Shown here: one piece after another, positions 1 to 20,692 of the stretch
Numbering within the stretch: position 1 is the stretch's first letter
Layout: each line of letters begins with the position of its first letter
Assembly (NCBI RefSeq): GCF_002563655.1
Contig: NZ_PDIY01000001.1
Coordinates: forward strand, 62,001-126,000
DNA from: Bacillus sp. es.034
GTDB lineage: Bacteria > Bacillota > Bacilli > Bacillales > Bacillaceae_B
Reading direction: 5' to 3'
Length of the DNA stretch: 64,000 nucleotides
Program-made: the position numbers and the translations under genes
Notes under the pieces: model-generated
What the model was told of the DNA's origin: nothing
Seen by the model: only the letters and a program-made list of their open reading frames with translations
Databases searched by the model: none

Positions 1-344
1 GCAGGACAAAGAATCGTATAAGGAACGTCCAGCTCTTCCATTACTGCATCACAAATCGGGCCGATATTCCCCTCAGGTGTAGAATCAAATGTTGAGCAAT
101 ATTTTATATAAAACTGTTGTGCCCCTTGCTCTTTTAACCAGGCGATCGCCTCGAGTGAATCGTTGACAGCGTCATTTGGATCTTGAGTACGTGTTTTCAA
201 GGCAATGACACATACCTCTGCCTTTGGAACCTCATCCATTTCAGGTATTCCAGAGTATAAAACGGTACTGAGTCCGCCTTTCACGAAGAAAGAAGCGATG
301 TCACTACCACCGGTAAAGTCATCTGCAATCACACCAAAGCGCAA
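1..344 (-). CDS. otnK: 3-oxo-tetronate kinase family protein (DUF1537), N-terminal part, cut by window edge
   Basis: This family phosphorylates four-carbon acid sugars such as 3-oxo-tetronate before aldolase or decarboxylase cleavage. The visible N-terminal 114 residues contain the family hallmarks GVIADDFTGGSDIA near the start and KYCSTFDSTPEGNIGP around residue 85. I read the frame by translating the reverse strand, and it is open to base 1. The start is ambiguous: TTG at 344 follows a G-rich ribosome binding site at good spacing and matches the family N-terminus, while GTG at 353 and ATG at 359 are in frame. It is the most distal visible gene of the leftward catabolic operon, 17-30 nt after the dehydrogenase. 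Family assignment is firm; the substrate is inferred only. Confidence 0.85.
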   Translation of the reverse strand, partial: MRFGVIADDFTGGSDIASFFVKGGLSTVLYSGIPEMDEVPKAEVCVIALKTRTQDPNDAVNDSLEAIAWLKEQGAQQFYIKYCSTFDSTPEGNIGPICDAVMEELDVPYTILCP

Positions 345-375
345 TAAATTCACCCCCATCCTATGTTTTTATGTA

Positions 376-1305
376 CTACTTTACCAATTCAGCTTCTGTT
401 TCTTGATAGCTCTTATTACGCACCTTTACACCCAACAAATCTTCAAAATAACATATCATGGCATGCTTGTAGAAATCACCTTGTCCGTTTTGTAATGCAA
501 GTTGATACGTTTGCATCGTTCCACTCAACGTTGGCAGCGGAATCTGGTATTTCATTAATACTTCATTCATACTTTCCATGTCTTTATAAGCTCTTTCAAG
601 TGAAAAACTATGTTCAAAATCCCCTTCTAACACCTTAGGAATCAATGTTTTTGAAGCAAAACTTGATCCAGTTGCCGTCATTAATACATCACCGAGTTTC
701 TCTGGATCTAAACCAAGCTTCACTCCAACCGGTAATAATTCACTAAAGCTTGCACAACAAATATTTAATACACAGTTATTAATCATTTTCGTCAGCTGCC
801 CAGCCCCGTTGTCACCCATGTAGAGGATCTGTTTCCCCATCCGGTCAAGCATTGGTTTCAGTGTGTGAAATAGTTCTTCATTCCCGCCGCACATGATCGT
901 AAGTGTTCCTTCGACCGTTGTTCTGGGATGACCCGAAATGGGGCAATCCATATATTCGATACCATTCTCCCTGCAGGTTTCTGCGACTTCTACTGCTCCT
1001 AAATAACTGATGGTGCTAAAGTCGACAATGGTCTGACCCTGCTTCATATATTTCAGTAAACCGTTTTCCCCTACTACAACCTTCTTTACAATCTCTAAGT
1101 CTGGCAGACAAAGAAATAGATAATCACTATCCGCTGTCTCCAAAATATTCGTTGTGGTTTTAATCCCTTGTGCATTGAATTCTTCTAATGCCTGTGGATT
1201 TGCATCACACACAAGATAATCATACTCACCTTCTTTTTCACCTTTTGCCAGATTGAATGCCATACCTGTGCCCATGACGCCTAATCCAATAAAACTTACT
1301 TTCAT
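376..1305 (-). CDS. NAD(P)-dependent beta-hydroxyacid dehydrogenase (3-hydroxyisobutyrate / L-threonate dehydrogenase type)
   Basis: A 309-residue member of the 6-phosphogluconate/3-hydroxyisobutyrate dehydrogenase family. The N-terminal Rossmann motif is FIGLGVMGTGMA (about residues 5-16). The substrate loop reads DCPISGHPRTTVEGTL (about 120-135), where the usual GG after the Ser is GH. The catalytic Lys lies in GAGQLTKMINN near residue 170. Members of this family that neighbour DUF1537 kinases oxidise four-carbon acids such as L-threonate, and that is the role I infer here. It lies between the racemase-family gene and the kinase in the same operon. Tartronate semialdehyde reductase is an alternative from the same family. 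Confidence 0.85.
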   Translation of the reverse strand: MKVSFIGLGVMGTGMAFNLAKGEKEGEYDYLVCDANPQALEEFNAQGIKTTTNILETADSDYLFLCLPDLEIVKKVVVGENGLLKYMKQGQTIVDFSTISYLGAVEVAETCRENGIEYMDCPISGHPRTTVEGTLTIMCGGNEELFHTLKPMLDRMGKQILYMGDNGAGQLTKMINNCVLNICCASFSELLPVGVKLGLDPEKLGDVLMTATGSSFASKTLIPKVLEGDFEHSFSLERAYKDMESMNEVLMKYQIPLPTLSGTMQTYQLALQNGQGDFYKHAMICYFEDLLGVKVRNKSYQETEAELVK

Positions 1306-1361
1306 TGAAATCTCTCCTTTTTGTTTGAAATCATTTCAAGGGCTGAAGAACGGGGAAGTAC

Positions 1362-2030
1362 CTAAGCGTTTACTTTATCCCCTTCCAATGCACCGATGAC
1401 CGCTTTGACCGCTTCTTTTGGACTTGTTAACACCGGAAGTCCTAATGTGCTCGTTTCAACTTCTGCACATGCCTGCGTGATCTGGGCAAGAATGATGGCT
1501 TCGCATCCTCTTTTTTGCAATTCCGCTGCGGCAAGACGATTCAGATGATTATGTTCGTCCTCATGACCAGCCTTCAATTCTGTCATCGCCTGCGTAATAA
1601 TCTCCGTTTCAACTTCCACTTCCCTGCCCCATTCATTGGCAAGCTTCTCCAATTGGGCTTTTGTTGCGGGTCCGGACGGTGCAGTAGTCGCCACAACGCC
1701 GATTTTTGTATAATGAGTAACGGCCTTTTCTAACATTGGGCGATCCACCGCAAAGATCGGGACGGATATAAATGGCTTCACAGCATCCACTACAGGTGTC
1801 AGCACAGTGCATGCTACAATAATCGCGTCTACTCCCGCTTCCTGTGCTTTACTGGCCAAATGGACAAAATCCCGAAATGATTTGTCATCGATTCCATTCA
1901 TTTGGTTGGCATGATACTGGATATTCTCGTCAACAAAATTTAAGACCGTCACTTCTGGTGCCAATTGTTTGAAGGCTGCATTTAAAGGTGGTACAGCATT
2001 GCAGGTTGCATGTATAATACCGATTTTCAT
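1362..2030 (-). CDS. Aspartate/glutamate racemase superfamily protein
   Basis: A 222-residue protein with the two-domain Asp/Glu/hydantoin racemase fold. It starts MKIGIIHATCNAVPP and carries the first catalytic Cys in IVACTVLTP (about residue 74). The equivalent position in the second half reads EAIILAQITQACAE, so the second conserved Cys of true racemases is replaced by Gln. That resembles the one-cysteine members of the superfamily (decarboxylase or isomerase types). It sits 30 nt from the ECF ATPase gene and 57 nt before the dehydrogenase. An isomerase or decarboxylase acting on a sugar-acid intermediate is a plausible role, but the reaction cannot be read from sequence. Confidence 0.8.
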   Translation of the reverse strand: MKIGIIHATCNAVPPLNAAFKQLAPEVTVLNFVDENIQYHANQMNGIDDKSFRDFVHLASKAQEAGVDAIIVACTVLTPVVDAVKPFISVPIFAVDRPMLEKAVTHYTKIGVVATTAPSGPATKAQLEKLANEWGREVEVETEIITQAMTELKAGHEDEHNHLNRLAAAELQKRGCEAIILAQITQACAEVETSTLGLPVLTSPKEAVKAVIGALEGDKVNA

Positions 2031-2058
2031 TTCGATTCTCCCCCTAGTGGTTTCCAGT

Positions 2059-2886
2059 TTATAGAGTGACCTTTACCTTACTTGAAGTTTTTTTTAGCAC
2101 ATCGATCATTTGACTGATATCTAATACTTTTTCATTGATATTTAATGTATTGCATAACCGGCTGATATGAGGCTGTTTCAACATCGCTTCTTCCAGGACA
2201 CCATGGTTCCAGAAAACATCCTGCTTATGAGAATCCTGAACGACTCTCTTATTTGCCATCACGATGACGCGTTCAAAGTTATTCACAACAAATTCCATAT
2301 CATGTGTAATGGTAATGATGGTTTTCCCTTCTTGAACTAATGAATCAATGATGTGCCCTAGTCTTTTAATGGCCAGGGAGTCTTGTCCAGCTGTTGGCTC
2401 GTCTAAGATAATCGTATCTGTATCCATCGCAATGACCGAGGCAATGGTGACAAATTTCTTCATGGAATAAGGCAAGTTATACGGATGTATATCTAAGAAT
2501 GGCACGATTCCTGTCAATTCAGCTGCCTTCATTACATTTTCTTCAATTTTCTCTTGTGAAAATCCAAGGTTTTTAGGTCCGAACCTAATTTCACTTTTTA
2601 CATTTTCGTGAAAAATTTGATCATCAGGGTTTTGAAAGACATACCCCACCTTTTTAGATATCTGAGCTGTTGTGTAATCTTTTGTATTCAATCCATCAAT
2701 GATCACATCACCTTGGGTCGGCTTTGTTAATCCATTCATCATTTTGACTGTTGTTGTTTTCCCGGCACCATTTTGTCCAACAATAGCTACTGATTCGCCC
2801 TTTTCGAAATTCATGCTGACATTTTCAACCGCTTTAAAACCGTTTGGATAACAATAGGTAACGTCCTTTAAAGTTAAATAGCTCAT
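2059..2886 (-). CDS. ECF transporter energy-coupling ATPase, second subunit with degenerate signature motif
   Basis: ABC ATPase of an energy-coupling factor importer. It has Walker A GQNGAGKTTT, a Q-loop in VFQNPDDQI and Walker B TIILDEPTAGQD, and the C-terminal extension typical of EcfA proteins. The ABC signature, normally LSGGQ, reads PYSMKKF, so one composite ATP site of the heterodimer is probably degenerate. I chose ATG 2886 because it is spaced correctly from an AAGGGGTG ribosome binding site and overlaps the upstream stop as ATGA; a longer frame to 2913 would start inside the upstream gene. It is co-transcribed with the partner ATPase, EcfT and the S component. Confidence 0.9.
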   Translation of the reverse strand: MSYLTLKDVTYCYPNGFKAVENVSMNFEKGESVAIVGQNGAGKTTTVKMMNGLTKPTQGDVIIDGLNTKDYTTAQISKKVGYVFQNPDDQIFHENVKSEIRFGPKNLGFSQEKIEENVMKAAELTGIVPFLDIHPYNLPYSMKKFVTIASVIAMDTDTIILDEPTAGQDSLAIKRLGHIIDSLVQEGKTIITITHDMEFVVNNFERVIVMANKRVVQDSHKQDVFWNHGVLEEAMLKQPHISRLCNTLNINEKVLDISQMIDVLKKTSSKVKVTL

Positions 2887-3746
2887 CATTTCACCCCTTG
2901 TAATTCCATCCATTGTTTCATTACTTGAACGGAGTCCCTTTCAGTGATGGGTATTCTTTCTGTATACATATTGTGTTTCCGCATTTGTAAATCCAATAGC
3001 GTATACTGGGTTAATCCTAATCCATAGTCCTGTGTATCTTCTTCAGAAAGCACTTCTTCCGTTCTTCCTTGTTTCTTAATCTGTCCATCCTGAAGGACAA
3101 TCACATAGTCTGCATATTCAGCAATCAATTCGATCTTGTGCTCTACTAAAATAATGGTTTTTCCTTTTTTCTTCATAATATCGATTACCCTGAATATTTC
3201 TTCCGTACCTTGTGGATCCAACTGTGATGTCGGTTCATCAAAAATGAGGATATCCGGTTCCATTACGATAATGGACGCTAAAGCGACCCGTTGTTTTTGA
3301 CCGCCCGACAACTCATTCGGGTTTTTGTGCTGGATATACTCAACCCCCAGCAATGTAATGATGTCTTGTACTTTCTGTTTAATAACACTGATTTCAACTC
3401 CTAGATTCTCCAGTCCGAAAGCGATCTCATCAAAAACAGTTTCCTTCACACCACTGATTTGGGTAAATGGATTTTGGAAGACAAACCCCACCTTCTGAGC
3501 AAGATCACTTGGATCCCATTCACAAACATCCTTCCCATCTATCAGCACTTCCCCACTTCTATCACCATTAAAAAAATGTGGAATAAAACCTCGGCAAACA
3601 TTGCAAAGTGTGGTCTTTCCCCCACCATTCACACCGACCAGAGCGTAAAATTTCCCGCTTTCAATCGTAAGATTCAGATCATCCAATACTTTTTCACTTC
3701 CAGTAGGATACTGGTATGATAGATTTCTAATCTCGATTCCACTCAT
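2886..3746 (-). CDS. ECF transporter energy-coupling ATPase, first subunit
   Basis: A 286-residue ABC ATPase with every consensus element: Walker A GVNGGGKTT, a Q-loop in VFQNPFTQI, the signature LSGGQKQRVALAS and Walker B ILIFDEPTSQLD. It pairs with the downstream degenerate subunit to form the ATPase dimer that drives the EcfT-S complex. It overlaps the ecfT stop by 4 nt (ATGA) and the next ATPase start at its own stop, so the genes are translationally coupled. The dedicated ATPases and T subunit beside a single S gene mark a group I ECF transporter rather than a shared module. Confidence 0.92.
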   Translation of the reverse strand: MSGIEIRNLSYQYPTGSEKVLDDLNLTIESGKFYALVGVNGGGKTTLCNVCRGFIPHFFNGDRSGEVLIDGKDVCEWDPSDLAQKVGFVFQNPFTQISGVKETVFDEIAFGLENLGVEISVIKQKVQDIITLLGVEYIQHKNPNELSGGQKQRVALASIIVMEPDILIFDEPTSQLDPQGTEEIFRVIDIMKKKGKTIILVEHKIELIAEYADYVIVLQDGQIKKQGRTEEVLSEEDTQDYGLGLTQYTLLDLQMRKHNMYTERIPITERDSVQVMKQWMELQGVK

Positions 3747-4492
3747 AAGAAAAACCTCCAGATCAAGATGGAAACAAATACAATCAATAGTACAACTCTT
3801 ACCACATGATCACTCTTAGTCTTTTCCAGTTGATGTAAGCTTGTCTTCTTTGTACGGGCAGTGAAAGCCCGGGATTCCAGTGTGATGGCTTTCTCATCTG
3901 TGCTTGAGAATGATGATAATATCAGTGGGGTTAATGCCGGTACAAATGCTTTCACCCTTATACTTAGATTCCCTTCCGTTTCAACACCACGGGTTCTTTG
4001 TGCATCCATAATCCGTAATAAATGCAGCCTCATTTCCGGAATAATCGTAAGTGCAGATGAAAGGACATAGGTAGCTTTTGGCGAAACTCCTGCTATTTCT
4101 AATGCTCGGGATAAATCATTGATTTTTGTAATCTGAAAAAATAACACAATGGCTGATCCCACCGCCAATATTTTGGAGGTTAATTGTAAACTGAAATGGA
4201 TTCCTTCTTGTTTAATGGAGAAGATGCTCCATGACCATAATATGGTCTCTCCAGGGTAGAAAAATGATTGCAAAAGAAAAATCATGAATACAATCGGTAT
4301 CAATCCTTTTAAGACGAAGTCTGCGTACTGCTTTGTTTTTCCAGCTGCCATTGCAATAAATAAACATAACACGGGGACTAAATAAGAATAGATATAACCT
4401 GGTAACAGTAGCGGGGTCATCATTAAAAAGGCGGCAAACATGAATTTAGTAGTTGGATAGAGATTTAGAATGAAACTTCTCAGTTTTTCCAT
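3743..4492 (-). CDS. ECF transporter transmembrane coupling protein (EcfT)
   Basis: A 249-residue membrane protein of the EcfT/CbiQ family, with several hydrophobic segments in the first 120 residues and one at the C-terminus. The cytoplasmic coupling helices carry the Ala-Arg-Gly type motifs, seen here as MDAQRTRGVE (about residue 162) and LESRAFTARTKK (about 205). These helices dock onto the two ATPases. The gene is followed with 4-nt overlap by the first ATPase and is separated from the S gene by 178 bp that contains a structured element. Membrane location and role follow from the family. Confidence 0.9.
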   Translation of the reverse strand: MEKLRSFILNLYPTTKFMFAAFLMMTPLLLPGYIYSYLVPVLCLFIAMAAGKTKQYADFVLKGLIPIVFMIFLLQSFFYPGETILWSWSIFSIKQEGIHFSLQLTSKILAVGSAIVLFFQITKINDLSRALEIAGVSPKATYVLSSALTIIPEMRLHLLRIMDAQRTRGVETEGNLSIRVKAFVPALTPLILSSFSSTDEKAITLESRAFTARTKKTSLHQLEKTKSDHVVRVVLLIVFVSILIWRFFL

Positions 4493-4611
4493 ATGTGTAT
4501 CTCCCCTTTCATGGTAAGGTTCATTTTTTGCTGATTATAGAAAAATTCCGGTCAATCCTTTCAAGCCCTCTGTTATTCCTGGAATATATTTTCCGAAAGC
4601 AGAAACGCGAT

Positions 4612-4672
4612 ATAACGGGGTGAGTGATGCAGTGACCTCAGATTCCTCAGCATGTTCACCCCGTGTTTTTTT
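4612..4672 (-). other. Structured RNA element between ecfS and ecfT
   Basis: In the operon transcript, a 9-bp perfect stem (ACGGGGTGA with TCACCCCGT) begins 8 nt after the S-component stop codon and encloses a roughly 30-nt loop with a smaller inner pairing (ATGC/GCAT). A run of T follows only on the plus strand, so this is not a terminator for the operon. It could protect or process the S-gene 3' end and so change S:T stoichiometry. I tried to fit TPP and purine riboswitch cores and could not. Confidence 0.4.
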
Positions 4673-5291
4673 AAGCTCCTATTTTAGTACTTCTATTATT
4701 ATTGTTCATCGTAAGATATAAGTGACCATACTTTTGTTTAGACAGGTATTGATCTGACATCTTACGAACAATCATATAGGCAACTAAAATCGAGAGAATT
4801 TTATCAATACTTTCAACAAATATCTTTTGTGTAAAAACGGATGTCCATATTTCTTTGCCTGAAGCTAAAAGTACGGCAGTGATTGTATCTGATCCAGTTC
4901 CTGAAGCTCCACCAAAGACAATAACCGTGGTCGGGGTAGCGATTAAGATGGCAACGATTGCAACAATAAAGCCTGTAAAAGCGACCTTCCAAACATTTTT
5001 TGTCAGCCCCTTTTTGGCCATGAGACCTACTACAATCCCTGAAGCCATGGCAACCGGCATAAACGCCAGCTGAGTAGGGTTGAATATCCCGAATATCAGT
5101 TTTGAGACGCCTCCAGTTACTGCTCCAACCCAAGGACCGGCTACCATCGCAACAATCATCGTGCCGATTTGATTTAAGAAAAGAGGGATCTTTAATAATT
5201 CAACCAATTCTCCAGCAACTACATTGACGGCAACACCAATGGGAATGAGCAATATGGAAATAAGCGTAAAATCCTTTTTTATACTTTTCAT
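4671..5291 (-). CDS. ECF transporter substrate-binding S component
   Basis: A 206-residue hydrophobic protein with about six membrane segments. The Ala/Gly/Thr-rich stretches FLNQIGTMIVAMVAGPWVGA and GGVSKLIFGIFNP resemble S components of ECF importers. These subunits bind the small-molecule substrate in the membrane and topple when engaged by EcfT. The gene follows the amidohydrolase by 27 bp and precedes ecfT, so it is dedicated to this transporter. Substrate cannot be read from sequence; the neighbouring nucleoside hydrolase and amidohydrolase point to a nucleoside or related compound. Confidence 0.82.
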   Translation of the reverse strand: MKSIKKDFTLISILLIPIGVAVNVVAGELVELLKIPLFLNQIGTMIVAMVAGPWVGAVTGGVSKLIFGIFNPTQLAFMPVAMASGIVVGLMAKKGLTKNVWKVAFTGFIVAIVAILIATPTTVIVFGGASGTGSDTITAVLLASGKEIWTSVFTQKIFVESIDKILSILVAYMIVRKMSDQYLSKQKYGHLYLTMNNNNRSTKIGA

Positions 5292-5318
5292 GTATAGTCC
5301 TCCTTTTATATGGGTTTT

Positions 5319-6839
5319 CTAAGATTTCATTTCTTCAAATTTTCCTTGCTCATGAGCAGCATCCAAACGGTTGCTGCCAGCCTCTTTCTCTCCAGGATGA
5401 GGATGAAATTTTTTATACATATCAGTGAAATAGGGTTCAACTTCATTCGCCCATTGAACACTTGCCCGGCTTTTTTGAAGAAGGGATTCCTGTTTTTCTT
5501 TTACTGATTGGAGTACCGCCTCTTCATCGAATGAAACCATTTTACGATTCTTGAGAATCCATTCTCCCTTTACCATCACTGATTCAATCGAACTCCCATT
5601 TTCGTAATACACAAGCTGAGAAATTACATCGGCATTCACTGTTAAAGCAGATGAGCGCTTGTTTAGTAAAACAAGGTCCGCTTCATAATCCTGTTTAATT
5701 TTTCCCCGCTTTTTCTCTTCGCCTAATATGTGTGCTCCCCCAACTGTCGCCATTTTAAGGACATCTATCGGCTGCAGCCATTCATGGAAATTGGGATGTT
5801 CTTGCCGGCTGTGCATAACAGCTATCCTCATGGCTTCAAAAAGGTTATGGGAGATTCCGCAATTGGAGGAATCCGTTCCTAAGGCCACGTTGATTCCATC
5901 TTCAAGATAGGATGATACGTTCGCTCTCCCGCTGCCAAGCATCATATTACTGACTGGATTATGAACAAAGGAAACCCCATGTTCAGCTAACATCTCTGCC
6001 TCATCATCTTCAATCCAAATGGAATGGGCGGCGGACAACTTTCTCGAAAGTAATTGTTGATCCCGCAGTCTGCCGAGTATGCCGCCCGAAAACGCCGAAT
6101 CCCCGACTTTCTTTTGAATTCTTGTTTCGAGAAGATGTGTATGAACACATGCCCCTCTTTGTTCACTCAATTCCTTACATAACGCGAGCATTTCCTCGGA
6201 ACAACGCTGCGGAGCATTTGGACCGACTACTATTTGAATTCGATTATTTTTATCATGCCACTTTTCGAAAAGAGAGTTATAAAACGCTCTCATTTCAACC
6301 ACTGATATCGGTGTTGCTTGGTCCAGTTTTCGCTTTGTATCGATCGGCAACTCAACTGGAAGAAAATGATGATCAGGAATATCATGCATCATGGGAGCGA
6401 ATCCGACTCTAATGGATGATGCTTCGTATGCTTTAAGGGCTGCTTCTGATCTTCTGATATGAGGAAAATGGTCAATGCAACTGGTCACACCGCTTTTAAT
6501 CATGTCTATTACACCTAAAAGTACTGCATTGTAAATATCCTCATCATCAAGTGAATAACCATATGCTGTTGTATAAAGGGACCACATTTCTAATGGAAGA
6601 TTGCTGGTTGTTCCTTTTAACAGATTCGAATAGGAATGATAATGAGCATTCGTCATACCAGGCATGACGATCATTTCAGATCCATCGATTGTTTCATTTA
6701 CGTGAATTGTTGGTTCACTCCCAGGGAGGTGTGGGATGACTTCTTTTATGCGTCCATTTTCCACACATACACTGCCCTGAATGATACCTGACTGGTCATC
6801 CATCGTAATGATGGTGGTGTTTTTAATGAGAGTTGACAT
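5319..6839 (-). CDS. Amidohydrolase of the TRZ/ATZ / nucleoside-deaminase type
   Basis: A 506-residue metal-dependent hydrolase of the amidohydrolase superfamily. The metal ligands are visible in order: GMTNAHYHSYSN (HxH, about residues 60-71), VHTHLLETR (about 235), AAHSIWIEDDE (about 272) and ALGTDSSNCG (Asp, about 320). The family deaminates or dechlorinates heterocycles (guanine, 8-oxoguanine, adenosine-like compounds, atrazine). Its place between a nucleoside hydrolase and an ECF importer suggests deamination of the imported compound or the released base. The protein is about 50 residues longer than typical deaminases because of a charged C-terminal tail from about residue 450. Confidence 0.85.
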   Translation of the reverse strand: MSTLIKNTTIITMDDQSGIIQGSVCVENGRIKEVIPHLPGSEPTIHVNETIDGSEMIVMPGMTNAHYHSYSNLLKGTTSNLPLEMWSLYTTAYGYSLDDEDIYNAVLLGVIDMIKSGVTSCIDHFPHIRRSEAALKAYEASSIRVGFAPMMHDIPDHHFLPVELPIDTKRKLDQATPISVVEMRAFYNSLFEKWHDKNNRIQIVVGPNAPQRCSEEMLALCKELSEQRGACVHTHLLETRIQKKVGDSAFSGGILGRLRDQQLLSRKLSAAHSIWIEDDEAEMLAEHGVSFVHNPVSNMMLGSGRANVSSYLEDGINVALGTDSSNCGISHNLFEAMRIAVMHSRQEHPNFHEWLQPIDVLKMATVGGAHILGEEKKRGKIKQDYEADLVLLNKRSSALTVNADVISQLVYYENGSSIESVMVKGEWILKNRKMVSFDEEAVLQSVKEKQESLLQKSRASVQWANEVEPYFTDMYKKFHPHPGEKEAGSNRLDAAHEQGKFEEMKS

Positions 6840-6900
6840 GGAGTCACCCCTTCAATGAATAATTTTCAAAATATTAAGATAACTAAGCGCGTAAAAAGAT

Positions 6901-7878
6901 TTATTTTTGTGTCTCTGCATAGTTTGTTTCCAGAGTAGAAATTCGTTCTGCAAAACGTCGTGCCACTGTCTCTCCATCTACATCCATCAGAATGGATGTA
7001 TTTGATTCTGAATGACCCCACTGTCCTGTAAACTCAGTGACCGTCTGACCGGCTGTAAGTTCTCCTTTTGTCTCGATTGAAACAAAAGCTGGCTGGACCT
7101 TAAAGAGTTCTGGCCAAAGGGCATAAGCTACGGCTGGGACATCATTAAAGAAAACGCCTGTCTCCGTTTCTGACGATTGCTTGGCGGCAATGTAAGCCTT
7201 GCGCCGAAATTCAGCGGCCTCTAATAGGAAAGTTCCTGGTCGCGTATTCGCATACCTGATACGTTCAAGGTTTTCGTGTGAGATTCTCACTTTTGTACAT
7301 ACATCGAGACCTACCTGTACGATTGGGGCACCAGAATTGTATATCACCCTTGCTGCCTCGGGATCAGTTGCCAGATTGAAGGACGCCACTGGGGAATAGT
7401 TCCCGGCAACACGGACTGCGCCACCCATGACAATGATCCTTTTCACTTTCTGCGCGATACCAGGGTCTATAGATAGAGCCAGAGCCACATTGGTTAATGG
7501 ACCTATCGCTAAAATAGTGATCTCGTTTGGTGCTTCGTTACAGCGCCTCACAATCTCCATGGCTGCAAACTCCCCGGCTTCTGATACGGTAGGGGCTGGG
7601 GCCTCGACTCCACCAAAACCATTATTGCCGTGAATATGCTTGGCAAATTGCGGTTGACGTATGAGGGGCCTGCTTGCTCCCCGGTAAACGGGGATATCCG
7701 TCCTGCCTGCTAATTCAAGTAATGAAAGGGCATTATGAGTCGCAGTCTCCACCTCAATATTTCCATGTACTGTTGTCAAAGCTTCAATATGCATTTCCGG
7801 TGACGCAAGTGCAAGATAGATTGCGGCAAGGTCGTCTACCCCCGGATCCGTGTCAATAATTACTCTTTCCATCATCAT
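6901..7878 (-). CDS. Inosine-uridine-type nucleoside hydrolase
   Basis: A 325-residue N-ribohydrolase. The calcium-binding signature [12 protein letters not shown] occupies about residues 8-19. Further conserved parts include [12 protein letters not shown] and IIVMGGAV (about 125-155) and the late Asp in [12 protein letters not shown] (about 243). The enzyme cleaves the N-glycosidic bond of nucleosides to base and free ribose. Three Met codons open the frame after an AGGAGG site. Its central position in the operon is the strongest hint that the imported substrate is a nucleoside or N-riboside. Confidence 0.9.
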
Positions 7879-7990
7879 GTTAACTCCTCCTATTCTCTTT
7901 TATAAGAATATCAAGACACATATCAGCACTAACTCCTTACTGTAATAAGGTTTCGGTCCCAACGCCTTCGATACTCTTTTTCTATTAAAA

Positions 7991-8815
7991 CTAAACCAAT
8001 TGAGAGTTTCTTTCTCTGTCTACCCCTTCGCAGAAGCGACGTGTTTTGTCCTCGTCAACCGGGTTCGTCATAATATCATCCACTTTCGCCCCATATCCAA
8101 AGACAGCTCCATCCGCATATTTGAGCAGATTGGCGGTTTCGACTTTCATTCCACTGCCGATAATGATTGGAACATCAGGGACTGCATTCCTTACCGCCTC
8201 TAAATTCTCAATGGAAGGAGGTTGAGCTGATTCCTCACCCGCAAGAATGATAGCGTCCGCCATTCCACGATAGGCAGTATCACGAGCCAAGACATCAATA
8301 GGACGAGCCGCTAAAGGAGCAGCATGTTTTGTTTGGATATCTGCGAAAATCTTGACTTTATTCTCTAAACCAAGAAATTTACGATATCTTGCTACCAAGT
8401 GCGCCGTACCGTTAATAAGACCCTGATCGGTTACGTATGCATCTGTCAGGACGTTAAGTCTGATAAAATCAGCCCCTACTGTTCCAGCAACTGCTAAAGC
8501 AGATTTCCACGAGTTTCTCAGGATATTAATCCCCATTGGAAGCTTCACTTCACGGCGAATTTCGTGAGCAATCAATGTCATCGCTGCTACTGTTTCAGGT
8601 TCCTCTGTTTCAGGGTAAAATGGGTAGTCATTAAAGTTTTCTACCATAACTGAGCTGGCTCCGCCTTTTTCAAGACTTTTTGCATCACGGATGGCAGCTT
8701 CTAATACATGGTCGATATTCCCTTCATATAGGGGGGATCCTGGCAGCGGACCTAAGTGAACCATTCCTAATACTGGTTTTTCGACACCGAACATATTTGC
8801 AAATGAGGTTTTCAT
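7991..8815 (-). CDS. BtpA/SgcQ family protein
   Basis: A 274-residue TIM-barrel-type protein. VLGMVHLGPLPGSPLY (about residues 14-29), GVNI-type loops such as GINILRNSWKSAL and the C-terminal IIIGSGMKVETAN are hallmarks of the BtpA family. BtpA was named for photosystem I biogenesis in cyanobacteria, and SgcQ lies in a sugar operon; the enzymatic reaction in heterotrophs is not settled as far as I know. Here it lies between SDR and nucleoside hydrolase genes, consistent with work on a sugar or sugar-base intermediate. Confidence 0.82.
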   Translation of the reverse strand: MKTSFANMFGVEKPVLGMVHLGPLPGSPLYEGNIDHVLEAAIRDAKSLEKGGASSVMVENFNDYPFYPETEEPETVAAMTLIAHEIRREVKLPMGINILRNSWKSALAVAGTVGADFIRLNVLTDAYVTDQGLINGTAHLVARYRKFLGLENKVKIFADIQTKHAAPLAARPIDVLARDTAYRGMADAIILAGEESAQPPSIENLEAVRNAVPDVPIIIGSGMKVETANLLKYADGAVFGYGAKVDDIMTNPVDEDKTRRFCEGVDRERNSQLV

Positions 8816-8929
8816 ACTATTTTTCTCCTCCTTTTAATGTTGATCATGTTCCTACTAGGGGGTAAATTCTTAAACTCTCAATCCATTATTCTATTCCATG
8901 AACGAATGGGCAGTTGGAAGGGAAGGCAT

Positions 8930-9769
8930 TTATTCTTTGACTCCGGTTGAAGCCATCCCTAAGTCGATTTCGTCCATAGAGAGTGCAACATCGGCATCCA
9001 TGCTTGGTGCCCGAAGCTGAGAAGTGAGTCCGCCATCAATGGCTAAGACATGACCCGTGATGTATGAAGCATCAGGTGAAGCTAAGAAACGGACTCCATG
9101 ACCAACATCTTGAGGCATTCCAAGCCTGCCAAGTGGAATGAGAAGGTCAGGAGAGGATTCCTCCCCGACTGCTGTACGGTTTTCAACCTCTATGGCGCCT
9201 GGCATCACAGCATTCACCCGGATTTTCCATGGAGCCAGATCAAGTGCCATTGCTCTTGTAGCGGCCTCAATGGCCCCTTTCGTCGCATCGTAAGCGACAC
9301 GATTCCGATGCGCGCGCGTTGCTCCACCAGAACTCATATTGATGATGACCCCGCCCTCCCCCTGATGGACCATTGCTCTTGCCGCCATTTGGCTACAGTA
9401 GTATAGTCCATTAAGGTGTACATTCATGAGGTTCTCCCACATAGGGAAGTCCGTTTTTAGAAAGTGTCTTTCCGAGAGCGGTCCGTGACCAATACCAGCA
9501 TTGTTAACAAGCACATCTATACCTCCTTGGAAATGACGTGCTTCCTCAAAGAGGTTTTTCACATCTTCACTTGACGCTACATCCGTATAGACGAATAGAC
9601 CTTCTCCTCCAGATTCAATGATCTCCTCCACACAGCGCTCGCCCGCTTCAGGATCAATATCAGCAATGACCACCGATGCACCGGTCTCTGCGAAAGCCAG
9701 GGCAATTCCACGTCCAACCCCCTTAGAGCCGCCAGTCACGATCACACGTTGCTTTTTTTTATCACTCAT
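8930..9769 (-). CDS. SDR family NAD(P)-dependent oxidoreductase (sugar dehydrogenase type)
   Basis: A 279-residue classical short-chain dehydrogenase. The cofactor motif is VTGGSKGVGRGIA (about residues 11-23), followed by the NNAG motif near 90, the catalytic Ser in NMSSGG (about 145) and YDATKGA (Tyr-x3-Lys, about 160-166). Asp in VVIADID after the second beta strand favours NAD. GHVLAIDGGLTSQLRA ends the core and a 25-residue tail follows. A lactone-forming sugar oxidation would pair well with the adjacent metallo-beta-lactamase-fold hydrolase, which could open the lactone; that coupling is inferred. Confidence 0.85.
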   Translation of the reverse strand: MSDKKKQRVIVTGGSKGVGRGIALAFAETGASVVIADIDPEAGERCVEEIIESGGEGLFVYTDVASSEDVKNLFEEARHFQGGIDVLVNNAGIGHGPLSERHFLKTDFPMWENLMNVHLNGLYYCSQMAARAMVHQGEGGVIINMSSGGATRAHRNRVAYDATKGAIEAATRAMALDLAPWKIRVNAVMPGAIEVENRTAVGEESSPDLLIPLGRLGMPQDVGHGVRFLASPDASYITGHVLAIDGGLTSQLRAPSMDADVALSMDEIDLGMASTGVKE

Positions 9770-9954
9770 TGTTTATACACCTCATTCAAATTTAGTTATC
9801 CAATTCCGTTTGGATAAGACTCTTTCGCAAATGACTTCTCTATTACTACAAAAATTTAAAACTGCTAAACTACTGACTTACAAAACACAAAGCATGTAAG
9901 CCTTTTCATTTAATTGCAAACACCACCTGGATAGTTAAAGAAGGTAAGGTAATC

Positions 9955-10725
9955 CTACTTGGACTGTTTCGCTAACGCTGACTCCTCTGCCAATTCAATC
10001 GTTGTATAATCCTCCAATGTATCAGAAAACCAGTATTGTAAGTCTGCTTCTCTTTCATGAACATAAACAGGTTCCCCGTTAACCAGTTTCAAAGGTATAT
10101 CATGTCCGGGTACTAAAATACTGTTCTCCCTTTTTTTCCATAAACTCCATAAGTAATCGATAGAATGCTGGCTATCTGAGAGATTCAGTGTCATATCGAC
10201 GTTTCTTGATAAAAGCTCCGCCCTATTCTTAGCGGCATCCCCGCTAAATATCAGATCATAATCCCCATTGTCTACGGTGTACGCCAAATGACCTGGTGAA
10301 TGTCCTTTCGTTTGATGCGCCACAATTCCTGGAACAATTTCTTCAAGGTCGTTGACCAACCTTATTTGTGAAGAAGAATTTAATTCTTTCACATACAATT
10401 CAGGAACATGCCAACCTCCAGGTGGTTCGTTTATTGCCCAATCCATATCCACCTTCCCCACTACAATGGTCGCGTTGGGGAACATAGTCCAATTAACACA
10501 ATGATCCCAATGCGTATGTGTCAATAAAACCATAGAGATGTCACTTGGAGATATACCTCTGGCTTCGAGTTTATCTAATAGTAAAGGCCTGACACCGAAG
10601 CTGCCGACATCGATAATAATGTGTTGGTCATGGTGGGACAATAACGTGACTGTACTCCATCCCAGCCCCCCATGAGTGGATGACTTTCCGGGAAACCCTT
10701 GAATAAATATGTTGTAGTCGTACAT
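9955..10725 (-). CDS. Metallo-beta-lactamase-fold hydrolase (lactonase-like)
   Basis: A 256-residue MBL-fold protein carrying the zinc motif LLTHTHWDHCVNW (HxHxDH, about residues 68-80), the later His in KGHSPGHLAY (about 140), Asp in IFSGDAAKNR (about 158) and the terminal His in LVPGHDIPL (about 205). It is the first gene of the operon, downstream of a GGAAACGTTTCC operator. MBL-fold lactonases open acyl-homoserine or sugar lactones, and next to the SDR a sugar lactonase is the simplest reading. The substrate is not established. Confidence 0.82.
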   Translation of the reverse strand: MYDYNIFIQGFPGKSSTHGGLGWSTVTLLSHHDQHIIIDVGSFGVRPLLLDKLEARGISPSDISMVLLTHTHWDHCVNWTMFPNATIVVGKVDMDWAINEPPGGWHVPELYVKELNSSSQIRLVNDLEEIVPGIVAHQTKGHSPGHLAYTVDNGDYDLIFSGDAAKNRAELLSRNVDMTLNLSDSQHSIDYLWSLWKKRENSILVPGHDIPLKLVNGEPVYVHEREADLQYWFSDTLEDYTTIELAEESALAKQSK

Positions 10726-11043
10726 TCCAATCCCCTTTCATCGTTGTTATTGAGTTGGATACCTTGAATGAGATTTAATGTTAATCCATTCAATTAGTTT
10801 AGATTTACATGATCTGTAAGAGAATAAATAAATCTTTTAAAAGACTATTCCTGGAAACGTTTCCACAAAACCTCCTAGAAACCTATTTCATTTTTAATTT
10901 ACGAGTTGGATATCATTCAGAAAATGAAAACGTTGTTTATAGGGCTTCTTGCAGCTGCCTGTACATAATAGGGTCATTCTGGAGCTGATAATAGCACAAA
11001 AACTTTGATGTTTAGTTTAGTTGAGTGGATAATACTTATTCAT
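10726..11043 (-). other. Operon leader and promoter region of the catabolic operon
   Basis: This non-coding stretch lies between the lacI terminator and the first operon gene. It holds the LacI-type operator at 10852-10865, and the operon promoter must lie in it. I see no convincing -35/-10 pair. It is AT-rich and contains no open frame with a ribosome binding site. Confidence 0.5.
10852..10865. promoter_or_regulatory. LacI-family operator upstream of the catabolic operon
   Basis: TGGAAACGTTTCCA is a perfect 14-bp palindrome with the central CG typical of LacI/GalR operators. The same core occurs at 11069-11084 and just upstream of the lacI start. It also fits the degenerate catabolite-response (cre) pattern TGNNANCGNTNNCA, so CcpA could bind as well. 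It lies 127 bp upstream of the first structural gene. Confidence 0.75.
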
Positions 11044-11100
11044 CCAAAAAAAATTTGATTTAAATAATGTGGAAACGTTTCCACTTATTTAAATCAAATT
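11044..11100 (-). terminator. lacI terminator whose apex is a LacI operator
   Basis: Two 16-nt arms (11052-11067 and 11085-11100, AATTTGATTTAAATAA and its complement) enclose GTGGAAACGTTTCCAC at 11069-11084, itself a perfect 16-bp palindrome. Only one unpaired base breaks the 49-bp dyad. On the minus strand the dyad is followed by eight T residues (11046-11053), giving an intrinsic terminator 85 nt after the lacI stop. The hairpin apex is therefore also a strong candidate operator. Confidence 0.75.
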
Positions 11101-11184
11101 ATACATACTTAGTAAACCACTTTCAATGATTTTTTTGAAAATTTATAAAATTATATTCATTTATCCTGAATCTCCAAATGTCTT

Positions 11185-12201
11185 TTAATTATTTGCTTCT
11201 CTCTCCATTGTTGACTCCCTTTCAATAAGAGTCGGATAAAAGAGGACAGTTTCTTTGATTATTTGTTTTTCCTTTATTGCTTTCACCATGATTTCGATAG
11301 CCCTTTGACCCATTTCTTTAATTGGCGTTCGTATAGTCGTAAGCATAGGATATAAGATTTCCGCATATTGAGAATCATCAAAACCAACAACTGACAATTG
11401 CTCGGGAATTCTAATATTCAGCTCCCTTGCAGCTTTGTAGACACCAACAGCCACACTGTCGCTAACCGCAAAGATTGCCGATGGCCTATCATTTTTTTGC
11501 AACAATCTCATTGCATTTTTATAACCGCTTTCAATATAAAACTTGTCAAAAATCACATAATCGTCCTTTATAGGAACGCCTCTTTCATTCAAGGCTAACT
11601 TGTACCCTTGGTGCCTTTCGATGGATGCGTAAGTTTCAGGATCCCCGCCGATAAAGGCAATATCCTTATGCCCTAAATCCAGAAGATGTCTCATCGCTTT
11701 ATATGCTCCATCAACATTATCAACTATGATCTCATTTAGAATTAATTTCGGGAATTTCCCCCCTAATATGACCACTGGCAGCTCAGGATAGTTTTCCTTC
11801 AATTCTTCTATATTTCCATCATCAGCCTCTGGAGATGAAAAGATGATTCCATCGACTCCTTTAGCAATCAGTAGGTGTATATACTCTGCTTCTTTCTGCA
11901 AATTGTTATCTGTATTACATAAAAAGATGTTAAATCCATGACTATTTGCTCGATCCTCTATTGTTCTAGTCAGATCTGAATAAAAAATATTCTTTATATC
12001 AGGTATGATTAAACCAAGAGTTAATGTTTGTTTCTTCTTCATTGCAGCAGCTACCAGACTTCCTTGGTAGTTAAGCTTCTTAACTGCATTAAGAACCTTT
12101 TCTTTCGTTTTTTCACTTGTATACCCGCTCTTATTAAGAACTCTTGACACTGTGGAGATTGAAACATTAGCTTCTTTTGCAACTTCCTTTATTGTTACCA
12201 A
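11185..12201 (-). CDS. LacI family transcriptional regulator
   Basis: A LacI/GalR repressor of 338 residues. The N-terminal helix-turn-helix reads TIKEVAKEANVSISTVSRVL, with the hinge near KLNYQGSLVA, followed by a periplasmic-binding-protein-like sensor domain (TLGLIIPDIKN, IAFIGGDPETY, LSVVGFDDSQYAE). I prefer TTG 12201 because AAGGA lies about 10 nt upstream and the protein then begins directly before the HTH; GTG 12210 lies too close to that site. Located upstream of and co-oriented with the catabolic operon, it probably represses it and itself through the three GGAAACGTTTCC sites, with an operon metabolite as inducer. Confidence 0.92.
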   Translation of the reverse strand: MVTIKEVAKEANVSISTVSRVLNKSGYTSEKTKEKVLNAVKKLNYQGSLVAAAMKKKQTLTLGLIIPDIKNIFYSDLTRTIEDRANSHGFNIFLCNTDNNLQKEAEYIHLLIAKGVDGIIFSSPEADDGNIEELKENYPELPVVILGGKFPKLILNEIIVDNVDGAYKAMRHLLDLGHKDIAFIGGDPETYASIERHQGYKLALNERGVPIKDDYVIFDKFYIESGYKNAMRLLQKNDRPSAIFAVSDSVAVGVYKAARELNIRIPEQLSVVGFDDSQYAEILYPMLTTIRTPIKEMGQRAIEIMVKAIKEKQIIKETVLFYPTLIERESTMEREANN

Positions 12202-12217
12202 TACTGACACATCCTTA

Positions 12218-12230
12218 TGGAAACGTTTCC
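12218..12230. promoter_or_regulatory. LacI operator at the lacI start (autoregulation)
   Basis: TGGAAACGTTTCC lies 17 bp upstream of the preferred lacI start. A TATAAT-like -10 (12246-12251, minus strand) sits just upstream of it. A repressor bound here would block early transcription, so autoregulation is likely. No good -35 is visible. Confidence 0.65.
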
Positions 12231-18934: not shown

Positions 18935-20692
18935 TTACTTCAAACTCTCCGATAACTCGGTGAATATTACCCCTAGCGCATAAGCACCTGCATCGGGATG
19001 ACCGAGGCTTCGTTCCCCAACGGTACCTGCTCGTCCCATCCGCGCAACAATATCCTTGGTTTTCTCGGCTCCTTCTACAGCGGCGGCTGCTCCTTTTTCA
19101 AACGCAGTCTTGAAGTCATCCCCGTTCGCTGAACTTGCCGACCAAGAGTCAGCACATGGAACGAGTGCATCCACGAGGGTTTTGTCGCCGACCTCTGCTC
19201 CTCTGCCGAAGGATCTCTCGCCAGTATCCTGGATTCCCTTCACCGCGGCCTGCAGCATGTCCGCGAATTCTTTCACGGTCAGTTCGGTTCGATCTTGCGC
19301 CGCTTTTCCTGCCGCACGGAACGCAGATCCCCAGATTGGACCGGAAGCACCGCCGCAATATTCCATGATGACCATGGAACTTGCATCCAGGAAGCTGCCG
19401 ATTGTGAGATTTTCTTGACTAAGGATGTCTTTCCACTCCCGCTTCAATTGCTTAAAGCCTTTAGAGACGCTCATCCCGAAATCCCCGTCTCCGGCATGTG
19501 AATCCAATTCACAGAAAGGTACTTCATTCTTGATGATGATGTCGCTCATTTTATCCACGAGGTAGATCACGTTATCAAGTGTTGCCTTATTATTCTTGAT
19601 CACAGCGTTCTCTTCCGATGTCTCCACTTCGAAGGAGACTGGTTTCTTTTCCTCACCTTCCTCCAGGTCGATGTACTCCACACCCGGTACCGGTCCGTCC
19701 ACCCTGAACGCAGGCGCTGTACTTTCACTGGATAGCAATGTTTTCAACTCTTCATCAAGCTTCATCACCGTCAGGGAAGCCCCTGCCATATCGATGCTCG
19801 TCATGTAATTGCCGACAAAGGCTCGGTTAATCTGAATTTTTTTATCCGCCAAAATCCGGGTGACGGAATGATTGAAAAGATAGAGTTCTTGCAGTGGCGT
19901 TCCTCCAAAGCCGTTTACAAGGACCACGATCTCGGAAGCATCTCCCTCTTCCATTTTCAGATCCTTCAGAAGGTCGTTGACCATCCGCTCTGCCAGTTCG
20001 TCTGCAGACGCCATTTTTTCCCGTCTTGTCCCAGGCTCACCGTGAATCCCGACACCATATTCGATTTCGTCGTCAGCCAATTTGAACGTCGGAGCTCCAC
20101 TAGCTGGGACGGTGCAGGATGTCAGTGCGAATCCGATGCTGCGGACATTTTCAGCCGCCTTCTCCGCCACTTCTTTGACTTCCTTCAAGCTTCTACCTTC
20201 TTCAGCCGCCGCTCCCGCAATTTTATGTACCAACACGGTTCCCGCGACACCGCGGCGTCCCACGGTATAAAGACTGTCTTCCACGGCAATATCATCTTCC
20301 ACTTTGACATATTCCACAGGGATGCCGTCCTCTGAAGCCATGTGAGCCGCATTTTTAAAATTCATGATATCCCCGCTGTAATTCTTAATGACCAAGAGGG
20401 CTCCCTTTTTACCGGCCGTCGCTTTAATCGCCTGATACACCTGAATCTGTGAAGGCGACGCAAACACATCCCCGCACACAGCTGCATCGAGCATCCCTTT
20501 CCCAACTAGTCCAGCATGTGCAGGCTCATGTCCACTTCCTCCGCCGCTGATCAACGTGACCTTCTCTTCATTCAAATCCTTTTTCTTCATCACCTTATAC
20601 TTCTTCATAAACTCAAGCTCCGGATGAGCCATGGCCATCCCATTGCACATCTCCACGACCAAATCTTCAGGTTCATTCATGACTTTCTTCAT
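18935..20692 (-). CDS. Fused dihydroxyacetone kinase (DhaK-DhaL), ATP-dependent type
   Basis: A 585-residue single-chain kinase. The DhaK domain (about 1-330) contains ISGGGSGHEPAHAG (about 48-61), GDVFASPS and the covalent substrate His in GVGIHGEPGTRRE (about 218). The DhaL ATP-binding domain (about 370-585) has LDSHAGDGDFGMSVSKGF (Mg-binding Asp residues), GGASGPIWGSAF, GDKTLVDALVP and RAGTVGERSLGHPDAGA. Such fusions use ATP rather than PTS phosphate and phosphorylate dihydroxyacetone or related trioses. It stands alone with an AGGAGG site and its own terminator. Confidence 0.95.
   Translation of the reverse strand: MKKVMNEPEDLVVEMCNGMAMAHPELEFMKKYKVMKKKDLNEEKVTLISGGGSGHEPAHAGLVGKGMLDAAVCGDVFASPSQIQVYQAIKATAGKKGALLVIKNYSGDIMNFKNAAHMASEDGIPVEYVKVEDDIAVEDSLYTVGRRGVAGTVLVHKIAGAAAEEGRSLKEVKEVAEKAAENVRSIGFALTSCTVPASGAPTFKLADDEIEYGVGIHGEPGTRREKMASADELAERMVNDLLKDLKMEEGDASEIVVLVNGFGGTPLQELYLFNHSVTRILADKKIQINRAFVGNYMTSIDMAGASLTVMKLDEELKTLLSSESTAPAFRVDGPVPGVEYIDLEEGEEKKPVSFEVETSEENAVIKNNKATLDNVIYLVDKMSDIIIKNEVPFCELDSHAGDGDFGMSVSKGFKQLKREWKDILSQENLTIGSFLDASSMVIMEYCGGASGPIWGSAFRAAGKAAQDRTELTVKEFADMLQAAVKGIQDTGERSFGRGAEVGDKTLVDALVPCADSWSASSANGDDFKTAFEKGAAAAVEGAEKTKDIVARMGRAGTVGERSLGHPDAGAYALGVIFTELSESLK

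What the first reader, a model, noticed from the sequence alone, without database searches (positions are those of the whole stretch)
1..12201. Candidate new catabolic pathway for a nucleoside-like compound
One LacI-controlled leftward operon joins a dedicated ECF importer, amidohydrolase, nucleoside hydrolase, BtpA/SgcQ protein, SDR, MBL-fold hydrolase, Asp/Glu-racemase-family protein, HIBADH-type dehydrogenase and OtnK-type kinase. Families seen directly; the inferred flow is import, deamination, base release, sugar oxidation to lactone, lactone opening and conversion to a phosphorylated four-carbon acid. I know of no described pathway with this exact set. An aldolase or PdxA-type gene may lie beyond base 1.
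Basis: partly seen in the sequence, partly recalled or inferred. Interest (0 to 1): 0.8.

Follow-up and report, generated by a model that had tools for sequence, protein, structure and literature searches.

The report
Mobile nucleoside-eating operon, oxidative route
A block of fourteen bacterial genes, kept in the same order in several genera of bacilli, looks like a complete kit for importing a nucleoside and burning its sugar by an oxidative route instead of the usual ribose-kinase route; one of its enzymes belongs to a large family for which no reaction was found in this work.

Summary
The operon is real. The same 14 genes in the same order occur in 6 of 10 named loci found with BtpA (Rossellomorea, Fredinandcohnia, Fictibacillus, Oceanobacillus); 2 more are cut by contig ends. 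The block moves between families. Its LacI operator core occurs three times in the 4.5 Mb genome, all in this control region. Comparison splits the operon in two. Relatives of the ECF importer sit beside nucleoside hydrolase or phosphorylase genes in 7 of 19 loci read, three with a ribokinase-type kinase. The racemase-fold, HIBADH, kinase and decarboxylase genes stand without the upper genes beside a carboxylate importer in one locus, the first two in another. Best reading: nucleoside import, base release, sugar oxidised to lactone and acid, then a threonate-like end. Open points: the kinase fits a C4-acid model while a nucleoside yields C5; all 9 genomes tested also have ribokinase; BtpA's step is unknown. 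No activity is shown. New variant of a known kind.

The parts
12219..12230 (.). LacI operator O1 (GGAAACGTTTCC) just upstream of the lacI start
   Evidence: Present at this place in 8 of 8 loci compared, window included; one of only 3 copies in the 4.5 Mb genome
11185..12201 (-). LacI-family regulator
   Evidence: PF00356 and PF13377 above cut-off; TTG start at 12201 aligns with ATG of relatives
11098..11126 (-). Promoter TTGAAA-17-TATAAT of the catabolic genes
   Evidence: Best promoter-like site of the stretch, 11 of 12 matches (the scan as a whole finds no more sites than shuffles); lies in a block conserved in relatives
11071..11082 (.). LacI operator O2, directly downstream of the -10 box
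   Evidence: 8 of 8 loci, window included
10853..10864 (.). LacI operator O3, 218 bp further on
   Evidence: 7 of 8 loci, one of them (L031) with one changed core base; not recognisable in Oceanobacillus L030
9955..10725 (-). MBL-fold hydrolase, probable sugar lactonase
   Evidence: PF00753; weak similarity to lactonase models and chains; the three plasmid relatives opened sit in carboxylate clusters
8930..9769 (-). SDR, probable sugar 1-dehydrogenase
   Evidence: PF13561; over the cut-off of the 'glucose 1-dehydrogenase' subfamily model PRK07231 (228 of 215 bits)
7991..8815 (-). BtpA/SgcQ family protein, step unknown
   Evidence: PF03437 and TIGR00259 above cut-off; best conserved protein of the operon (mean 95.5 percent over 5 loci); weak match to phosphate-binding TIM barrels
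6901..7878 (-). Nucleoside hydrolase (IUNH fold) with Asn in place of the His of the C-terminal HD motif
   Evidence: PF01156
5319..6839 (-). Amidohydrolase, probable deaminase of an adenosine-like compound; accessory
   Evidence: PF01979; nearest solved chain is named MTA/SAH deaminase; not in its place in Neobacillus L035
4671..5291 (-). ECF transporter S component, CD3073-like
   Evidence: NF045596 at 136 bits, below its cut-off of 180
3743..4492 (-). ECF transporter T component
   Evidence: PF02361
2886..3746 (-). ECF ATPase A1
   Evidence: PF00005
2059..2913 (-). ECF ATPase A2
   Evidence: PF00005
1362..2030 (-). Asp/Glu-racemase-fold protein with one of the two catalytic Cys; candidate 2-oxo/3-oxo acid isomerase
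   Evidence: PF01177; Cys pattern; the usual isomerase OtnI is over cut-off in 0 of 7 genomes
376..1305 (-). HIBADH-type dehydrogenase of a sugar acid
   Evidence: PF03446 and PF14833; two plasmid relatives in aldonate clusters
1..359 (-). 5' part of the 3-oxo-tetronate kinase (OtnK) gene; the gene runs to genome C1:61109 and is followed by the OtnC-like aldolase gene C1:60502-61101, both left of the window
   Evidence: NF043035 at 436 bits, cut-off 350; L002 13109-14359 and 12502-13101

Best explanation
A horizontally mobile, LacI-repressed operon for using a nucleoside as carbon source. The ECF transporter imports the nucleoside (inferred from the neighbours of its relatives). The amidohydrolase, where present, deaminates adenosine-like bases. 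The nucleoside hydrolase frees the pentose. The SDR oxidises the pentose at C1 to a lactone and the MBL protein opens it to the aldonate (inferred). The HIBADH-type enzyme oxidises the aldonate, the single-Cys racemase-fold protein moves the keto group from C2 to C3 in place of OtnI, OtnK phosphorylates the far end and OtnC removes the carboxylate. With a pentose the product would be a tetrulose 4-phosphate, by analogy with the threonate route that gives DHAP. BtpA acts on the sugar or sugar-phosphate side; its exact step is not known. Shown: gene content, conservation, operators, modular structure, motif changes. Inferred: every reaction.
For: Conserved 14-gene order in 6 of 10 named BtpA loci. 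HIBADH relatives at E up to 1e-90 in 9 of 397 genomes of the order and MBL relatives at E up to 1e-45 in 7 of 397, the 7 being among the 9; 8 of the 9 loci were read: six belong to the operon and two to the acid module with a TTT importer. ECF-S relatives next to IUNH plus a ribokinase-type kinase in three loci, and next to IUNH or nucleoside phosphorylase in 7 of 19 loci read. Acid module beside carboxylate importer genes and a GntR-type regulator in L087 and, in part, L088. OtnK over the 3-oxo-tetronate kinase cut-off. OtnI over cut-off in 0 of 7 genomes, no hit at all in 3 of 7. HIBADH relatives at 38 and 40 percent in aldonate clusters, one of them with a sugar dehydrogenase and a lactonase. 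Operator core: three copies genome-wide, all here.
Against: Ribokinase over its cut-off in 9 of 9 genomes tested, so plain ribose has another fate. OtnK's model is for four-carbon acids. OtnC is below its cut-off (176 of 250), HIBADH far below the L-threonate dehydrogenase cut-off (152 of 350) and the S component below the CD3073 cut-off (136 of 180). The nucleoside hydrolase lacks the usual His of the HD motif. 12 of 19 ECF-S relatives showed no nucleoside gene within 4 kb; one of these, L111, has a weaker IUNH at 4.06 kb; several of these stretches are short or cut. An OtnI-free bypass is reported for L-threonate (quoted in PMC12540250), so a missing OtnI does not prove that the racemase-fold protein replaces it. 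L088 has no OtnK or OtnC beside it, its genome holding only 26-29 percent kinase relatives. No activity, growth or expression data.
Confidence: 0.55

Rival explanations
1. C4 reading: the acid module makes DHAP from a tetronate as in the L-threonate or D-erythronate route, and BtpA or another upper gene shortens the sugar, or the imported compound carries a four-carbon glycone.
For: Kinase passes the 3-oxo-tetronate kinase model; nearest solved chains 1yzy, 5dmh, 3dqq, which I recall as OtnK-type proteins; a 70-78 percent identical module occurs in L087 without upper genes or BtpA, so it should end in a central metabolite.
Against: No operon gene is of a family known to me to remove one carbon from a pentose; natural four-carbon nucleosides are not known to me; a kinase model cannot tell C4 from C5 acids.
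Confidence: 0.2
2. Two functions under one regulator: ordinary nucleoside salvage (import, hydrolysis, the freed ribose going to the housekeeping ribokinase) joined with a separate sugar-lactone and sugar-acid route whose substrate is not the nucleoside sugar.
For: Ribokinase in 9 of 9 genomes; the acid module exists on its own; MBL relatives lie in carboxylate clusters.
Against: No carboxylate importer in the operon; the set and order are kept across genera and one LacI with private operators controls it.
Confidence: 0.15
3. A refinement of the best explanation rather than its opposite: the substrate is a nucleoside whose sugar ribokinase cannot use (for example an arabinoside or a sugar-modified nucleoside); the oxidative route exists for that reason.
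For: Explains why ribokinase-bearing genomes keep the operon and why a ribokinase-type gene is replaced by SDR and MBL relative to L093-L095; hydrolase with altered motif.
Against: Substrate identity cannot be read from sequence; L094 and L095 hydrolases share the Asn yet stand with a ribokinase-type kinase.
Confidence: 0.3
4. BtpA is an end-of-pathway phosphosugar isomerase, for instance tetrulose 4-phosphate to erythrose 4-phosphate, not an upper enzyme.
For: Profile similarity to phosphate-binding barrels; in 12 of 15 other BtpA loci looked at it stands near a sugar kinase or PTS genes (annotated; nine loci by eye, the PfkB pair of L017 confirmed).
Against: Three of the 15 show no such gene: Halostagnicola L042 and the short L032 and L034. 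The window subfamily has FGYG where the others have VGT-like residues at the putative phosphate site; the L087 acid module has no BtpA beside it, and none at E up to 1e-30 was found in that genome.
Confidence: 0.2

Closest known systems
L-threonate / D-erythronate catabolism (LtnD, OtnI, OtnK, OtnC; Zhang et al. 2016, recalled; summarised in PMC12540250, passages read)
   Same: Same order of reaction types: acid dehydrogenase, 3-oxo acid kinase of the same family, class II aldolase-fold decarboxylase
   Different: Preceded by nucleoside import, hydrolysis and lactone steps; no OtnI over cut-off, a racemase-fold protein instead; HIBADH is not LtnD by the curated cut-off
Oxidative deoxyribose and deoxyribonate catabolism (PMC6365646, passages read)
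   Same: Sugar oxidised to lactone, lactonase, sugar acid, oxidation to a 3-keto acid
   Different: [quoted passage not shown] neither is in this operon, which has a kinase and decarboxylase
   Same: Same ECF type, IUNH, LacI in two of three
   Different: A ribokinase-type kinase takes the place of SDR, MBL and the acid module
SgcQ/BtpA operons (E. coli sgc, recalled; L017-L025)
   Same: BtpA-family protein in a sugar-catabolic operon
   Different: Those carry PfkB or FGGY kinases or PTS genes (by eye); here OtnK is the only kinase and the subfamily differs at the phosphate motif

Membership tests
L-threonate pathway (LtnD-OtnI-OtnK-OtnC) | 3-oxo-tetronate kinase over curated cut-off | tested here: met
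   NF043035 436 bits, cut-off 350
L-threonate pathway (LtnD-OtnI-OtnK-OtnC) | L-threonate dehydrogenase LtnD over curated cut-off | tested here: not met
   NF043037 152 bits, cut-off 350
L-threonate pathway (LtnD-OtnI-OtnK-OtnC) | OtnI isomerase in the genome | tested here: not met
   NF043033 over cut-off (325) in 0 of 7 genomes; weaker matches in 4 of 7, best 71 bits in G000
L-threonate pathway (LtnD-OtnI-OtnK-OtnC) | OtnC decarboxylase | tested here: inconclusive
   Best model NF043034, 176 bits, cut-off 250
CD3073-type ECF transporter | S component over the NF045596 cut-off | tested here: not met
   136 bits, cut-off 180
CD3073-type ECF transporter | Dedicated S, T, A1, A2 genes together | tested here: met
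   Window 2059-5291
IU nucleoside hydrolase (RihC, RihA type) | Pfam family match | tested here: met
   PF01156 304 bits, cut-off 34.2; the RihC, RihA and UriH equivalog models are not reached
IU nucleoside hydrolase (RihC, RihA type) | His of the C-terminal HD motif (its catalytic role recalled) | tested here: not met
   Asn in the window and 7 of 7 operon relatives; also in L094 and L095; HD in the four printed solved relatives
Asp/Glu racemase (two-Cys) family | Two catalytic cysteines (recalled) | tested here: not met
   First Cys kept in 12 of 12 aligned proteins; at the second place Ile in the 7 of the window subgroup and Tyr, Phe or Met in the 5 others (place fixed by the 1jfl alignment)
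BtpA/SgcQ family | TIGR00259 over cut-off | tested here: met
   268 bits, cut-off 153.4
Oxidative deoxyribonate pathway | Beta-keto acid cleavage enzyme in the cluster | tested here: not met
   None among the 14 genes

The most novel reading that the evidence does not exclude
A previously undescribed oxidative nucleoside pathway: ECF import, hydrolysis, non-phosphorylative oxidation of the pentose to its aldonate, then a 3-oxo acid kinase and decarboxylase giving a tetrulose phosphate, with a new isomerase from the Asp/Glu racemase fold and the first definable catabolic role for a BtpA-family enzyme.
Probability: 0.4. Interest if true: 0.75.

Novelty: new variant of a known kind. Interest (0 to 1): 0.56.

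Why it matters
BtpA/SgcQ proteins occur in bacteria and archaea without an assigned reaction that I could find; this compact operon, with one regulator and private operators, gives them a testable context. It would add a second way to use nucleoside sugars beside ribokinase and phosphorylase routes, name a likely substrate class for CD3073-like ECF transporters, and offer a non-homologous replacement for OtnI.

Tried and rejected
Chance assembly was rejected by order conservation across genera and by the co-occurrence of MBL and HIBADH. 'Ordinary threonate operon' was rejected as a full label because LtnD and OtnI fail their cut-offs. 'Asp/Glu racemase' was rejected as a function because the second Cys is missing. 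An OtnI-type isomerase elsewhere in the genome was looked for and not found over cut-off. Distant BtpA relatives gave little: the Chloroflexi L032 locus has a GntR gene and a sugar ABC transporter (named by eye) but none of the other operon genes, the Thermoproteota L034 locus a different neighbour. The closest OtnC relative on plasmids, Ilyobacter, sits in an unrelated carboxylate cluster. Of 12 plasmid HIBADH rows listed I opened three; S. fredii L171 carries no annotation and was not read further. Two distant racemase-fold hits in the class (35 and 36 percent) were not opened. The solved-structure search for the SDR used too strict a limit and returned nothing. A quinol oxidase gene of the window was a poor yardstick because of paralogues; two other oxidase copies were used instead. 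Rfam (gathering scores) and tRNA scans of the window were empty. Papers: no paper held the terms asked for; the listings (20 of 216 shown; 5 of 2,819 shown; 30 of 210 shown) named none, by title and start of abstract, that describes this gene set or a reaction of a BtpA/SgcQ enzyme; the name BtpA is mostly used there for other things.
Full report
Observation. The window is G000:C1:62001-126000 of a single 4,514,426-base contig. Left of base 1 (L002) the kinase gene is complete (416 aa) and followed 7 bases later by a 199-aa class II aldolase gene (PF00596), then by a sigma-54 regulator gene and a different cluster. The operon therefore has 14 genes: lacI, MBL, SDR, btpA, IUNH, amidohydrolase, ECF S, T, A1, A2, racemase fold, HIBADH, otnK, otnC.

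Conservation. BtpA of the window was used to search named genomes; 10 loci came back. Six of the 10 hold all 14 genes in the same order (L026 and L033 Rossellomorea aquimaris, L027 and L028 Fredinandcohnia onubensis, L029 Fictibacillus phosphorivorans, L030 Oceanobacillus senegalensis). Two are cut by contig ends (L031; L035 Neobacillus drentensis, which begins inside btpA and has no amidohydrolase gene between IUNH and ECF S). Two hold only a distant BtpA (L032, L034). In the order, HIBADH relatives at E up to 1e-90 occur in 9 of 397 genomes and MBL relatives at E up to 1e-45 in 7 of 397; the seven are among the nine. I read six of the seven as operon-bearing (G000, G183, G114, G318, G335; G673, where lacI lay outside the stretch fetched); G669 was not read. 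The remaining two of the nine, G175 and G279, carry the acid module only.

Mobility. Two respiratory oxidase genes of the host are 94 and 91 percent identical to the same-genus G183, but 70 and 71 percent to Fictibacillus G114 and 80 and 63 percent to Fredinandcohnia G335. The operon proteins are about as close to G114 (75-96 percent) and Fredinandcohnia (80-97 percent) as to G183 (79-96 percent). The block has therefore moved between families. Only these two genes, chosen because they were at hand, served as yardstick.

Regulation. A palindrome with core GGAAACGTTTCC lies upstream of lacI (12219-12230), right after the -10 box of a TTGAAA-17-TATAAT promoter (11071-11082; promoter 11126-11098) and 218 bp further on (10853-10864). 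The first two are kept in 8 of 8 loci compared, window included, the third in 7 of 8, one of these with one changed core base. In the whole genome the 12-mer occurs three times, all here; the reversed control pattern occurs twice. LacI thus looks like a private, self-repressing regulator.

Two modules. (a) The ECF S protein resembles NCBIfam CD3073 (below cut-off). Relatives were found in 27 of 299 genomes of the phylum, own genome included. I fetched stretches around 19 of the 28 matches other than the own one. Of 19, seven have an IUNH or a nucleoside phosphorylase within 3.7 kb (L093-L096, L100, L101, L108); an eighth, L111, has a weaker IUNH at 4.06 kb; eleven show neither. That count used small profiles of my own, built partly from proteins of these same loci, and a simple gene finder, and several stretches are short; curated models confirm L093, L094, L095, L096 and L100, while L101 and L108 rest on my profiles alone. 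In L093, L094 and L095 an IUNH and a ribokinase-type PfkB kinase accompany the transporter; only the L093 kinase was tested against the ribokinase model, and passed. The window operon keeps importer and hydrolase but has SDR, MBL and the acid module instead of the kinase. (b) Racemase fold, HIBADH, kinase and decarboxylase occur without the upper genes in L087 (78, 72, 70, 70 percent), next to TctC, TctB, TctA and an FCD/GntR regulator, and the first two in L088 (65, 69 percent) next to TctC and TctA and, by eye, a TctB and a GntR-type regulator. So this module takes a carboxylic acid. Of 12 plasmid rows listed for HIBADH (2,252 records matched) I opened three: one stands beside IlvD/Edd dehydratase and TTT genes (40 percent), one beside a dihydroxyacid dehydratase, a Gfo/Idh dehydrogenase and an SMP-30 gluconolactonase (38 percent), one has no annotation. 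The two readable ones are aldonate routes, one of them with sugar oxidation and lactone opening. The meeting point of the two modules is therefore most simply an aldonate made by SDR and MBL. This is inference.

Enzyme details. OtnK passes the curated 3-oxo-tetronate kinase cut-off (436 of 350); the D-threonate kinase and 3-oxo-isoapionate kinase models fit far less (127 and 109 bits). [quoted passage not shown] OtnI is over cut-off in 0 of 7 genomes; G183, G318 and G175 have no match at all, G000, G114, G279 and G335 only weaker ones (best 71 bits of 325, in G000). The racemase-fold protein keeps the first catalytic Cys (VACTVLTP) in 12 of 12 aligned proteins of two subgroups; at the place of the second, fixed by the alignment with aspartate racemase 1jfl, stands Ile in the 7 proteins of the window subgroup and Tyr, Phe or Met in the other 5. 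A one-base isomerase moving a keto group suits this, but a reported OtnI-free bypass (PMC12540250, passages read) is an alternative. The IUNH protein has the DTDPGVDD motif, but Asn for the His of the HD motif in the window and in 7 of 7 operon relatives; L094 and L095 share this, L093 and the four solved relatives whose alignments were printed have HD. The amidohydrolase is nearest to a chain named MTA/SAH deaminase among solved ones, is the fastest changing protein (mean 78.9 percent over 5 loci) and is not in its place in Neobacillus, so it is probably accessory.

BtpA. It is the best conserved protein (mean 95.5 percent over 5 loci). No convincing solved relative was found by single sequence (best E 0.032); a 14-sequence profile gave weak matches to tryptophan synthase alpha type chains, CutC and geranylgeranylglyceryl phosphate synthase (best E 9.5e-6). 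Of 15 other BtpA loci looked at, 12 have a PfkB or FGGY kinase, another sugar kinase or PTS genes nearby (annotated; nine loci by eye); three do not: Halostagnicola L042 and the short L032 and L034. The window subfamily, L032 included, has FGYG where the other 11 sequences of the alignment have VGT-like residues. Whether it still binds a phosphate, and its step, remain open.

Problems kept open. First, carbon count: an ordinary nucleoside gives a C5 acid, the kinase model is for C4. If the kinase takes C5, the product is a tetrulose 4-phosphate that needs a further isomerase. Second, ribokinase over its cut-off is present in 9 of 9 genomes tested, seven of them with the operon, so ordinary ribose does not need this route; a sugar that ribokinase cannot use would explain this. 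Third, no reaction has been shown.

Novelty. I found no description of this gene set in the open-access library (listings only); subscription papers are mostly missing there. The parts are known kinds; the combination, the OtnI replacement and the BtpA role would be new. New variant of a known kind, interest 0.56.

Noticed in passing
window 6901-7878; L094, L095: IUNH proteins with Asn in place of the His of the HD motif form a recurring subtype linked to this ECF transporter type.
   Followed up: partly
window 2059-2913: The ECF A2 ATPase has PYSMKK where ABC proteins carry the LSGGQ signature; L093 is similar (PYSKRK). Read by eye.
   Followed up: no
L027 9110-10822; L028 9644-11197: btpA is duplicated in tandem in one Fredinandcohnia locus; in the other the second copy is in fragments.
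   Followed up: no
L040, L089, L091, L092: A second racemase-fold subgroup, also single-Cys, sits with aldehyde and iron alcohol dehydrogenase genes, or with other OtnK and OtnC relatives.
   Followed up: partly
window 18935-20692: Fused DhaK-DhaL dihydroxyacetone kinase (PF02733, PF02734) 6.7 kb from lacI; such kinases can act on erythrulose (recalled), so a link to a tetrulose product is conceivable.
   Followed up: partly
L020, L022: BtpA next to genes that look by eye like a gluconate-type permease, a SelA-like ammonia lyase, an aldolase and a sugar kinase: another BtpA context worth a look.
   Followed up: no
L041 (Ponticoccus) and L017 (Bacillales): A recurring set of LacI, Rbs-type ABC transporter, phosphotriesterase-like, amidotransferase-like, ribokinase-type, BtpA and M20 genes in two phyla (L017 mostly by eye).
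   Followed up: no
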